NCBI GenBank assembly: GCA_018240405.1
Contig: JAFEFW010000621.1
Coordinates: 1 to 64,000 of the forward strand
Source of the DNA: Pseudomonadota bacterium
Lineage (GTDB): Bacteria > Pseudomonadota > Alphaproteobacteria > Acetobacterales > Acetobacteraceae
Direction of reading: 5' to 3'
Length of the DNA stretch: 64,000 nt
The first letter of the stretch is position 1. Every line of letters begins with the position of its first letter. Shown in pieces: positions 3,127-7,031 of this stretch. The notes beneath the pieces are model-generated. The model saw only the letters and a program-made list of their open reading frames with translations, was not told the DNA's origin and made no database searches. A program made the translations under genes and the position numbers.

Positions 3127-3425
3127 CAACGAGGCCTCGCAGCGGCTGGCAACGCGCTGCAGGGGCGCGTCGTTAAAGTGATGTATCGGCTGCGGCGGTG
3201 CGATGGTGCTCATCCGGCACTGGACCGGTGAGCGCCAGTGGCGCGGTCGGTTGCCCAGCAGCTCTGGCTCGCCTGCGGCGAAGAGTGGCAGCCCGCCGGC
3301 TGGGGCGGTGCGGGGCAGGATGGGCCGATGCCGGACCTAGCCGGTTCTGCTACGGTCGCATGAGACCGGCCTGCGCCAGAAGCGGCCAGGCCGCCGCAGG
3401 AACCAGCCGCGACCGGAGGAACGCC

Positions 3426-4478
3426 ATGGATTCGACACGACGCGCCGTCCTTGCCGCATCTGCCGGCACCATCCTGACGGGCGCCGCCCTCGCCCCCGCC
3501 GCGAGGGCACAGCGTCCGGAACCACAGGCGCTGACGCCGGACCTGGAGGCGGCGGCCAGGAAGGAAGGCAAGATCGTCTGGTACACCTCGGACGATCTGG
3601 TGGTGGCAACGAAAATGGCGAAGGGGTTTGAAGCCAGATACGGAATGACCGTGCAGCTGGAACGCTCCGGCGCGGAGCGCATCTACCAGCGGATCGCGCA
3701 GGAGTATGCGTCAAACGTCGCCGAAGTCGACGTAGCGAGCACGTCCGATGTCGGCCACACCGTGTCCTGGAGCGCCAATGGCTGGCTGGCGCCGTTCATC
3801 CCGGCGGAGGTGACGAAATGGCCGGCACAGGCGATCGGCGCGGACGGGCGGTACATCGTGCACCGGTTCACACTGGTGCTGCCAGGCTACAATAGCCGCC
3901 TGGTCAAGGCGGAGGACGCGCCGAAATCGTGGACCGACCTGCTGGACCCGAAATGGAAGAACAAGCTGGTGAAGGCACATCCCGGCTATTCCGGCGCCAT
4001 CAGCACCGAGACACTGGCGCTGAGCCGCCTGCTGGGCTGGGAATTCTATGAAAAACTGGCGAAGCAGGGCGTGCTGCAGGTGCAATCGGCAACCGACCCG
4101 CCGATGCGGACGGCGCAGGGCGAGCGCGCGGTCATGGCCGACGGATCGGAGAACACCGCGAACCGCCTGATCATGGACGGCGCGCCGCTGGTGCTGGTTT
4201 ATCCGCCCGAGGGCGTGCCGATCATCACCGCCGCCAGCGTGGTCATGCAGCGCTCCCAGCGGCCGGCCGCCGCTCGGCTGTTCATGCACTACCTGGTGTC
4301 GCCGGAGTGCCAGGCGATCGGCGTCGCCAACGGCGTGCGCACCTTCGATCCGGGTGTCACCGAACCGGCAGGCTGGATGCCGCTGTCGAAGATCAAGCTG
4401 CTGTTCGTGGAACCGGACGACATGGCGAAGCAGGCCGACGAGATCAAACGGCGCTACACGAAGATCTTTGGCGTTTGA
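3426..4478 (+). CDS. Iron(III)-type ABC transporter substrate-binding protein (FbpA-like)
   Basis: The protein is 350 aa. The chosen ATG follows GGAGGAAC and opens with a Tat-like leader (TRRAVLAAS, then a hydrophobic stretch ending at ARAQ), which argues against the longer upstream reading frame. The mature part has the family 1/8 solute-binding fold: EGKIVWYTS near the N terminus, then GYNSRLVKAEDAPKSWTDLL and EGVPIITAAS. Relatives bind ferric iron or small organic solutes such as phosphonates and polyamines in the periplasm. No permease or ATPase gene is adjacent, so it is an orphan component here. The neighbouring LLM oxidoreductase begins 100 nt downstream and may be co-transcribed. Confidence 0.85.
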   Translation: MDSTRRAVLAASAGTILTGAALAPAARAQRPEPQALTPDLEAAARKEGKIVWYTSDDLVVATKMAKGFEARYGMTVQLERSGAERIYQRIAQEYASNVAEVDVASTSDVGHTVSWSANGWLAPFIPAEVTKWPAQAIGADGRYIVHRFTLVLPGYNSRLVKAEDAPKSWTDLLDPKWKNKLVKAHPGYSGAISTETLALSRLLGWEFYEKLAKQGVLQVQSATDPPMRTAQGERAVMADGSENTANRLIMDGAPLVLVYPPEGVPIITAASVVMQRSQRPAAARLFMHYLVSPECQAIGVANGVRTFDPGVTEPAGWMPLSKIKLLFVEPDDMAKQADEIKRRYTKIFGV

Positions 4479-4578
4479 CGGAAGCTGTCCTGTCAGCCCG
4501 CGCGGCATCGTCGCGGCTGGCCACGGCGACAGGCCGGCTGCTCTGTGTCATCGTCCCCGGCAGGAGGACATCCAGGAT

Positions 4579-5601: not shown

Positions 5602-5823
5602 TCGGCTGCTGCCTGATGGTGGTCGTGGATCGCTGCGGGTATGCTTTAGCCGTTCAAGTGGGTTGCGCGGAGCGTGTAGGTGTTGGGGCGTTGTCTCCGC
5701 GATCCTTGCGCGTATTAGATGATCGAAGCCGCATAACGCCCGTTTATGGAAAGTCACCGAAGGATCTTCATGAGTTCTTGATCTCGCACGTTGCGTCAGC
5801 GAGTTATCCCGCGTACTATGAGA

Positions 5824-6588
5824 TTAATTCGGATTCATTTGGACTAATCCTTGTACATACTTAGCTGGCGTTTGGAGCGGGGACCTAGACGGCGTTTTAA
5901 GACCAGCTATTCGAGCGATGGCATCAATGAAATCTATGCAATTTGCATCAGTGAGAGCGTAGTGACCGGTATCATAGTTATTGATCGCCGCTAGGATGGA
6001 AGCTCTAAGATTTATTGAGAGAGGCCACTTCCCCGAGGCTATTATGTTAGAGAATCGCACGGGATTTTTATCGAATTCATTGTTAACTACGCCCGGTCCA
6101 CCAACGGCAAGTTCGGTACCACCGTTTTTTGGATAGAATCCGAAACAGTCCTCTTTTATCCCCTGATTAAGCAGCATCTCGATGCACATGAATGCGTGCC
6201 CAAGCGAAGGTCCTTGGGCAAAGCCAGCTGGGGACGCCATAATCTCAAGCTGTATGTTGCTGCTTATTTCCACTAAGCCGCTCGTAGATGCGGTCAGTGC
6301 ACGTACACACATTCCGCTAGCGTCCTTTATAATCCATGTATGGCCACGGTATGTAGGTTGAACATACTGCTGCTTGGGAGCAAGTTGTTTATACGACTGA
6401 AGTCCTCCCGTAAAATTCACCCAGAACACATTAAGTGGTTCTCGCGTACTATTCTTAAATGTAATCGTAATCTGCTGATTTGACTGTACCGAACGGCCTA
6501 TATTCGCACAGCCATTTGGCATTTGCGCCATAGCACAGTTGAACGGTCCGATTATAAAAAAGCCAAGGACAACCAATACGAACCGCAT
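5824..6588 (-). CDS. Exported protein with a VHL-like beta domain and a putative permuted papain-fold domain
   Basis: The ATG at 6588 gives 254 aa with a clean signal peptide (MRFVLVVLGFF ... CAMAQ) and AAGG upstream; a GTG at 6669 would add 27 residues. Residues about 39-95 align without gaps to the human VHL beta domain as I remember it: the run FKN...FWVNF..G.Q.Y, then P..., TYRGHTW and KDAS. The five hydroxyproline-pocket positions W88, Y98, S111, H115, W117 correspond to W56, Y66, T79, H83, W85 here, so only S111 is changed (to Thr). The second half has GHAF (H131) and, 86 residues later, NCIDF (C217), the His-then-Cys order of LRAT/permuted NlpC-type folds. Codon usage is AT-rich, unlike the flanks, so it was probably acquired horizontally. 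Its function and partner are unknown. Confidence 0.82.
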   Translation of the reverse strand: MRFVLVVLGFFIIGPFNCAMAQMPNGCANIGRSVQSNQQITITFKNSTREPLNVFWVNFTGGLQSYKQLAPKQQYVQPTYRGHTWIIKDASGMCVRALTASTSGLVEISSNIQLEIMASPAGFAQGPSLGHAFMCIEMLLNQGIKEDCFGFYPKNGGTELAVGGPGVVNNEFDKNPVRFSNIIASGKWPLSINLRASILAAINNYDTGHYALTDANCIDFIDAIARIAGLKTPSRSPLQTPAKYVQGLVQMNPN

Positions 6589-7031
6589 AGACCTTACTGC
6601 TTTCGTGGATTCGACGAACATGCCTGATGCTGCCCGTACCTCAATTCTGTCTGCGTCAGTATCGAACACTCTTGGGTGCTTGTCATCAGTGCGCGAGAGG
6701 CACCGTCTCTTGCCTTGGCGAGACGGCCGCTAGTCCCCAAGCCGGGCTCACTCACGCATGATAACGTCCTTTATCATGCATAGGCTGCATATTTAGCGGT
6801 GATTGCCCGACGCTGGCCTCCAGGCGCCTCGCCGTCGCCAACTTCAGACAGACAACCTTGCCGAAACCACACCATGGCTGCCGCGGTCCGGCCCGACGCC
6901 GACGACCGCCGCAGCCGGCACGTGAATTGCTGCTGGGAACATCGCTGCGTCATTTTCAGCCGGATTCCGACCGCGCACATATCCGCCGCCGACAGCAGAC
7001 CGCTCGCGACGACGCCCCAGCCCCCCGACCC
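6589..7031. other. Intergenic region upstream of the VHL-like gene
   Basis: The part next to the VHL-like gene (to about 6790) is AT-rich and presumably holds its promoter. It contains the 9-bp inverted repeat described separately. From about 6790 to 7031 the composition returns to GC-rich and I see no supported gene on either strand; the open frames there lack starts, Shine-Dalgarno sites and recognisable motifs. Confidence 0.5.
6756..6779. repeat. 9-bp perfect inverted repeat near the island edge
   Basis: GCATGATAA and TTATCATGC flank a 6-nt loop (CGTCCT). The repeat sits about 170 nt upstream of the VHL-like gene and close to the switch from AT-rich to GC-rich DNA. It could be an operator, a terminator stem without a T tract, or a recombination remnant; nothing in the sequence decides between these. 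Confidence 0.6.

What the first reader, a model, noticed from the sequence alone, without database searches (positions are those of the whole stretch)
5824..6588. Exported bacterial protein with a VHL beta domain keeping a near-complete hydroxyproline pocket
Residues about 39-95 (numbering from the ATG at 6588) align ungapped with the human VHL beta domain as I know it. The positions equivalent to N78, W88, N90, F91, Y98, Y112, R113, G114, H115, W117, D121 and A122 are identical, and S111 is Thr. The pocket residues W88, Y98, H115 and W117 and their spacing (10, 13, 4, 2) are kept. VHL reads hydroxyproline on HIF inside eukaryotic cells. Here the domain is on a secreted protein in an AT-rich island, so it may bind hydroxyprolyl or other peptides outside the cell. 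The alignment was done from memory.
Basis: partly seen in the sequence, partly recalled or inferred. Interest (0 to 1): 0.85.

Follow-up and report, generated by a model that had tools for sequence, protein, structure and literature searches.

The report
Secreted bacterial VHL-domain putative peptidase
A bacterium carries, on foreign-looking DNA, a gene for a probably exported protein that joins a relative of the human VHL tumour suppressor's recognition domain, with the residues of its hydroxyproline-binding pocket nearly all kept, to what looks like a protein- or peptide-cutting domain, and related bacterial VHL domains keep the same residues.

Summary
Window 5824-6588 (minus strand, 254 aa) has a VHL beta domain: PF01847, E 8.2e-10, 39 bits against a cut-off of 21, ungapped with human VHL at residues 30-91. 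W88, Y98, H115 and W117 are identical; S111 is Thr. (1) The C-terminal half resembles a permuted papain-fold cysteine hydrolase, His131...Cys217 (weak PF05903; profile-to-PDB). (2) The pocket is not special to this protein: in 42 distinct bacterial VHL domains W88 and H115 are kept in 42, S/T111 in 42, W117 in 40, Y98 in 35. (3) Bacterial VHL domains occur on caspases, a kinase and lectin-type proteins, usually with a Cys pair (both Cys in 35 of 42, neither in 5). The gene is AT-rich (GC3 0.45 against 0.82-0.91 in five neighbours), and its flanks lie apart in eight same-genus genomes. Best reading: an exported binding module that brings a hydrolase to a target, perhaps a hydroxyprolyl peptide. 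Hydroxyproline binding is untested; structure prediction was off; hydroxylase co-occurrence was uninformative.

The parts
5824..6588 (-). CDS, 254 aa, ATG at 6588; an AAGG ends 3 bases before the start
6523..6588 (-). signal-peptide-like N-terminus (residues 1-22, AMA|Q)
   Evidence: read from the sequence; crude hydrophobicity rule positive; no signal-peptide predictor available
6316..6495 (-). VHL beta domain, residues 32-91
   Evidence: PF01847 E 8.2e-10, same place in the whole-genome search
6334..6423 (-). pocket residues W56 (W88), Y66 (Y98), T79 (S111), H83 (H115), W85 (W117)
6508..6510 (-). Cys27, first member of the Cys pair of bacterial VHL domains
6307..6309 (-). Cys94, second member of the Cys pair
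5839..6237 (-). C-terminal permuted papain-like hydrolase domain, about residues 118-250 (likely, not proven)
   Evidence: PF05903 E 0.0017 whole protein / 0.00064 for the C-terminal 147 aa alone, both below the gathering score; profile to PDB 6v98 E 0.017, 3ebq and 2wp7 (PPPDE) E 0.88 and 0.95; stand-alone relatives L014, L064
6196..6198 (-). His131 (GHAF), proposed catalytic His
   Evidence: invariant in the 3-sequence alignment; role inferred
5938..5940 (-). Cys217 (NCIDF), proposed nucleophile
   Evidence: invariant in the 3-sequence alignment; role inferred
5701..6800 (.). AT-rich island holding the gene
   Evidence: 100-base GC steps and GC3; flanking genes on different contigs in eight same-genus genomes

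Best explanation
A probably exported two-domain protein acquired by horizontal transfer. The N-terminal VHL-type beta domain, probably held by a Cys27-Cys94 disulfide, binds a ligand in the pocket W56/Y66/T79/H83/W85 and so places the C-terminal permuted papain-like cysteine hydrolase (His131/Cys217) on its target outside the cytoplasm. The target is most likely a peptide or glycoprotein bearing a hydroxylated ring, with hydroxyproline the leading candidate. Shown: homology of the VHL domain, conservation of the pocket residues, both-or-neither pattern of the two Cys. Likely: export, foreign origin, hydrolase fold. Inferred: disulfide, ligand, and the order bind-then-cut.
For: PF01847 hit and human VHL as best PDB match. 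Pocket residues conserved in 42 distinct bacterial domains: five random columns are as conserved in 3 of 100000 draws, or 6 of 100000 in the 23-sequence set gathered mostly without motif selection. Residues that line up with the Hyp-OH hydrogen bonders S111 and H115 (PMC9528729 passages) are S/T 42/42 and H 42/42. Of the 'aromatic tetrahedron' said to hold the VHL core together (F76, W117, F119, F136; PMC3688787 passages), F119 is Phe in only 1 of 42, so core packing alone does not dictate what is kept. Cys pair: both in 35, neither in 5, one in 2 of 42; the three Streptomyces proteins lack both. C-terminal domain. Same theme elsewhere: VHL with caspase (L035, L037), kinase (L058), ricin-type lectin (L004, L037) and mannan-binding repeat (L027, L048).
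Against: No binding data and no structure. S111 is Thr in 35 of 42, I109 is Gln in 30 of 42, and the window has Pro for H110. Equally conserved columns lie outside the pocket (S65, N78, G93), and two other tetrahedron residues are kept (F76 Phe in 33 of 41, W117 Trp in 40 of 42), so part of the conservation may be structural. The Pfam model used to find relatives itself weighs these residues. The hydrolase assignment is below Pfam's gathering score, and its relatives L014 and L064 have no Pfam match of their own. No other VHL protein in the DNA held carries this C-terminal domain. No PF13640 gene listed lies next to a VHL gene.
Confidence: 0.45

Rival explanations
1. The pocket is kept but reads another ligand, such as a sugar ring, an unmodified proline or another hydroxylated side chain; bacterial VHL is a lectin-like module and the window protein targets glycans or glycan-linked peptides.
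For: Fusions with ricin-type lectin domains (L004, L037), the mannan-binding repeat MVL (L027, L048) and SH3 (L034). Right-hand subsite changed: I109 to Gln 30/42, R107 to Tyr 19/42. Aromatic pockets with His/Thr also suit sugars (general knowledge).
Against: Y98, which hydrogen-bonds the peptide carbonyl in VHL (PMC9528729 passages), is kept in 35 of 42. Co-occurring lectin domains may simply be a second targeting module.
Confidence: 0.3
2. The residues are kept only because they hold the beta sandwich together; there is no binding pocket in use and the domain is a structural spacer.
For: S65, N78 and G93 outside the pocket are as conserved. W117 belongs to the aromatic core of VHL (PMC3688787 passages), and core residue F76 is Phe in 33 of 41.
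Against: Another core residue, F119, is free to vary (Phe in 1 of 42) while S/T111 and H115, polar pocket residues, do not.
Confidence: 0.2
3. An exported antibacterial or host-directed toxin: the C-terminal papain-like domain is the warhead and VHL the targeting part.
For: Closest solved relative in the profile search is a cysteine hydrolase, 6v98, which I recall to be a type VI effector (a paper search did not confirm it); gene on foreign-looking DNA. Papain-like toxin domains are common (PMC3482391 passages).
Against: No other ORF of 80 aa or more lies wholly inside 5701-6800, so no partner immunity gene is evident there; no secretion-system part among the seven neighbouring genes scanned; E only 0.017; a Sec-like N-terminus.
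Confidence: 0.1

Closest known systems
Human VHL (pVHL) beta domain, e.g. PDB 1lm8/1lqb
   Same: Ungapped 62-residue alignment, 21 identities, all five Hyp-pocket positions kept (S111 as Thr)
   Different: No alpha/elongin-binding domain found by Pfam, signal-like N-terminus, bacterial-type Cys pair, changed right-hand subsite (I109Q, R107Y), fused to a hydrolase-like domain
EMK97_00595 of Litorilituus sediminis (PMC9002001)
   Same: Bacterial protein with a VHL beta domain and a predicted signal peptide, described in print in 2022 (abstract, passages and the human-comparison section seen)
   Different: The paper argues for tumour suppressor activity and compares bulk properties with human VHL; what I saw does not examine the Hyp-pocket residues (no 'His115' in the text) or mention a hydrolase domain; its figures and supplements were not seen
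PPPDE/DeSI permuted papain peptidases (PF05903; 3ebq, 2wp7) and cysteine hydrolase 6v98
   Same: His first, then Y-x-L...N-C-x-x-F in the window protein; weak profile matches
   Different: Below gathering score; probably exported; fused to VHL; catalysis untested

Membership tests
VHL beta domain (PF01847) | Score above the curated gathering cut-off | tested here: met
   39 bits against 21, E 8.2e-10
VHL beta domain (PF01847) | Hydroxyproline-pocket residues W88, Y98, S111, H115, W117 | tested here: met
   W, Y, T, H, W at the same ungapped positions; S111 is replaced by Thr
VHL beta domain (PF01847) | Full-length beta sandwich with the residues lining one cavity | tested here: inconclusive
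   Match covers profile 2-61 of 82; structure prediction switched off
VHL E3 substrate receptor (pVHL) | Alpha domain that binds elongin C | tested here: not met
   Pfam at E up to 1 shows only PF01847 and PF05903
VHL E3 substrate receptor (pVHL) | Binds hydroxyprolyl HIF peptide | not testable with these tools
   needs purified protein
Peptidase C97 / PPPDE (PF05903) | Score above the curated gathering cut-off | tested here: not met
   18.6 bits (20 for the C-terminal part alone) against 29.2
Peptidase C97 / PPPDE (PF05903) | His then Cys in permuted order | tested here: met
   His131 and Cys217 invariant in the window protein, L014 and L064; catalytic role inferred
Peptidase C97 / PPPDE (PF05903) | Peptidase or isopeptidase activity | not testable with these tools
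   needs assay

The most novel reading that the evidence does not exclude
Bacteria own a mobile hydroxyproline-reading domain family homologous to VHL. Outside the cell it targets hydrolases and lectins to hydroxyproline-bearing proteins, and inside Streptomyces it gates a caspase and a kinase. The oxygen-sensing reader of animals would then be one recruitment of an ancient, widely traded recognition module.
Probability: 0.25. Interest if true: 0.85.

Novelty: new variant of a known kind. Interest (0 to 1): 0.6.

Why it matters
VHL is known as the animal reader of hydroxyproline in oxygen sensing (general knowledge). At least one bacterial protein with the domain is already in print (PMC9002001), and I recall that Pfam has long listed others. 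What my paper searches (open-licence PMC only) did not show is that the pocket residues stay nearly invariant in bacteria and that the domain is attached to caspases, a kinase and, here, a papain-like hydrolase. One binding experiment would decide whether hydroxyproline reading reaches beyond animals or whether the pocket has another, unknown natural ligand. That ligand could also matter for chemistry built on VHL ligands.

Tried and rejected

Link to hydroxylases: PF13640 (E at most 0.001) is in 22 of 29 VHL-bearing genomes, 21 of 29 over the cut-off, and in 101 of 219 genomes of the window's phylum, 100 over the cut-off. For the 13 VHL genomes that I take to be Proteobacteria (by kinship or record title) the count over the cut-off is 8 of 13 against 100 of 219, Fisher p 0.39; at E at most 0.001 it is 9 of 13 against 101 of 219, p 0.15 (the first version mixed the two thresholds). 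Genomes whose pocket lost Y98 have PF13640 over the cut-off in 1 of 4, against 19 of 24 that keep it (G903, whose hit is broken, left out), p 0.058 (0.052 with G903): small, confounded by kinship, and made after looking. No PF13640 place listed lies beside a VHL gene; the nearest that I saw on one contig are about 17 kb (G814) and 40 kb (G845) away. Not informative either way.

Viral or plasmid carriage: no match in phages or viral contigs, one plasmid record (Calothrix), at those sensitivities. Not supported as the usual vehicle.

The window domain has 21 of 59 identities to human; five other domains have 21 or 22 of 60.

Dropped before counts: L056, a PF01847 hit with a stop inside, is not among the 42; identical domain sequences were collapsed. 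The 42 include both copies from one protein (L004), near relatives (L011, L031, L032) and partial hits (L023, L034). Of the 19 outside the 23-sequence set, L009 came from a tblastn search and 18 from the motif scan, whose two motifs lie at W88 and H115. In the 23-sequence set, L044 was also a motif find (as L035) and L001 is the window itself; without these two, 15 of 21 keep W-Y-S/T-H-W.

The paper search for 6v98 did not show what that protein is.

Full report
Observation. The minus-strand ORF 5824-6588 encodes 254 aa. hmmscan gives PF01847, VHL beta domain, at residues 32-91, E 8.2e-10, 39 bits against a gathering score of 21. phmmer against PDB sequences returns human VHL first, E about 7e-5, ungapped from residue 30 to 91. 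In VHL the Hyp hydroxyl is bound by Ser111 and His115, and the Hyp carbonyl by Tyr98, in a cage with Trp88, His110 and Trp117 (PMC9528729, passages). W88, Y98, I109, S111, H115 and W117 are said to be almost invariably conserved in vertebrates and invertebrates (PMC6650433, passages). In the window protein I109 is Gln, H110 is Pro and R107 is Tyr.

What else is in the protein. The C-terminal half matches PF05903 (PPPDE, Peptidase_C97) weakly: E 0.0017 in the whole protein, 0.00064 for the C-terminal 147 aa alone, both below the gathering score. Searches for relatives found two stand-alone proteins with a signal-like N-terminus (read by eye): L014 in the same family and L064 in another family of the class; neither has a Pfam match of its own. 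The three share invariant HAF and Y-x-L...C-I-x-F. A profile of the three returns four PDB sequences up to E 10: a cysteine hydrolase 6v98 (E 0.017), the two PPPDE proteins 3ebq and 2wp7 (E 0.88 and 0.95) and an E3 ligase, 7uv8 (E 1.2), that I take to be chance; the window piece alone gave only 6v98, at E 1.6. I recall 6v98 as a type VI secretion effector; one search did not confirm that. I read this half as a permuted papain-like hydrolase with His131 and Cys217, likely but not proven. Among ORFs of 40 aa or more in the loci held when one search was made (L001-L058), only the window gene and L014 match this profile, so the fusion is so far seen once.

How common and how conserved. PF01847 rings in 1 of 150 genomes of the window's family (itself), 7 of 398 of its phylum including itself, 9 of 244 of the Nostoc phylum and 2 of 199 Streptomyces genomes; the last two counts include the genome each search started from, and one of the nine has a stop inside. 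A motif scan of genome contigs (84,980 species) gave 23 loci, whose titles name Cyanobacteria, Gemmatimonadetes, Enhygromyxa, Limnohabitans and other Proteobacteria, Chloroflexi, Streptomyces and Terriglobia; several are metagenome bins. From all loci then held I collected 42 distinct domain sequences. Counts: W88 42/42, Y98 35/42, S111 as T 35 and S 7, H115 42/42, W117 40/42 (F in 2), N78 41/41, S65 39/40. 32 read W-Y-T-H-W and 3 W-Y-S-H-W; in the 23-sequence set gathered mainly without the motif 17 of 23 do. The mean entropy of the five pocket columns is matched by 3 of 100000 random sets of five columns, and by 6 of 100000 in the 23-sequence set. This is biased upward because the Pfam model itself weighs these residues. 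Columns outside the pocket (N78, S65, G93) are as conserved. Of the aromatic core described in PMC3688787 (passages), F119 is Phe in 1 of 42, which speaks against a purely structural cause, but F76 is Phe in 33 of 41 and W117 is kept, which speaks for one in part; F136 lies beyond the aligned stretch.

Cys pair and location. 35 of 42 domains have a Cys before the first strand and one after W117, 5 have neither and 2 have one. The three Streptomyces proteins (L036, L044 = L035, L058) lack both, and a crude rule finds no signal in them (L044's frame was cut by the locus end). I infer a disulfide in the exported versions. By the same crude rule 28 of 42 rows have a signal-like stretch before the domain; some frames are cut and the rule is rough.

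Company the domain keeps. I scanned 15 other VHL proteins, chosen mostly because they are longer than the bare domain: caspase (Peptidase_C14) in L035 (Streptomyces typhae) and L037 (Terriglobia), protein kinase in L058 (found in the Streptomyces genus search), ricin-type lectin in L004 and L037, mannan-binding MVL in L027 and L048, CAP in L051, SH3 in L034, a pilin-type methylation motif in L026; the other six (L002, L019, L020, L036, L053, L055) show VHL alone above cut-off. The domain looks like a recognition module attached to different effectors (inference).

Where the gene lies. GC is 0.42-0.54 in 100-base steps across the gene against 0.62-0.73 outside the island, and GC3 is 0.45 against 0.82-0.91 in five neighbours. 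The left neighbour is a luciferase-like monooxygenase, the right ones GNAT, Ppx and Ppk. Drafts are fragmented, so this is consistent with, not proof of, insertion at a breakpoint. L012 (same genus) is identical in its frame to L024 and L011 (same family) to L030, both from records titled Acetobacteraceae, so I place the window in that family.

Mechanism. Most likely an exported, disulfide-held VHL domain docks a papain-like hydrolase on a ligand whose ring sits in the pocket. Hydroxyproline in peptides or glycoproteins is the leading candidate because the residues that touch the hydroxyl in VHL are among those kept. Sugar or another ligand, pure structure, and a toxin role are rivals (see fields). 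The hydroxylase test did not help.

Literature. PMC9002001 (abstract, passages and the human-comparison section) already reports one bacterial VHL protein with a predicted signal peptide. My searches (listings) and word searches inside PMC8195603, PMC7159879 and PMC3482391 (no VHL in the text held) showed no report of pocket conservation in bacteria or of VHL-caspase or VHL-kinase proteins; only open-licence PMC papers were searched.

Noticed in passing
L035:3018-5216 (+), Streptomyces typhae: Caspase (Peptidase_C14) + TPR below cut-off + C-terminal VHL beta domain without the Cys pair.
   Followed up: partly
L058:637-1740 (+), genome G1165 of the Streptomyces genus search: Protein kinase domain followed by a VHL beta domain; the genome has no PF13640 match.
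   Followed up: partly
L037:2511-5264 (+), Terriglobia MAG: Putative Ig, caspase, ricin-type lectin and VHL in one 918-aa frame.
   Followed up: partly
L027 and L048, genome G827: Two VHL + mannan-binding (MVL) proteins in one alphaproteobacterial genome.
   Followed up: no
L004:1-2034 (+): A second, diverged VHL-like copy (residues 593-657) that has lost Y98 and has Phe for W117, without the Cys pair.
   Followed up: no
L014:1498-2118 (-) and L064: Stand-alone relatives of the window protein's C-terminal domain with signal-like N-termini and no Pfam match of their own.
   Followed up: partly
L003, L005, L006, L008, L029, L052 and the second copy in L004: Domains that lost Tyr98. Of the four genomes tested whose intact pocket lacks it (G410, G460, G465, G1048) three have no PF13640 gene over the cut-off, against 5 of 24 with Tyr98 (p 0.058).
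   Followed up: partly
L056, genome G903: PF01847 hit with a stop codon inside, perhaps a decayed copy.
   Followed up: no
window 6318-6337 and 6762-6781: 20-base direct repeat, 85% identical, one copy inside the gene and one in the AT-rich upstream stretch; may be chance.
   Followed up: no
window 3415-4487 and G000:C44:21853-22910: A second copy, 79% identical, of the solute-binding-protein stretch elsewhere in the same genome.
   Followed up: no
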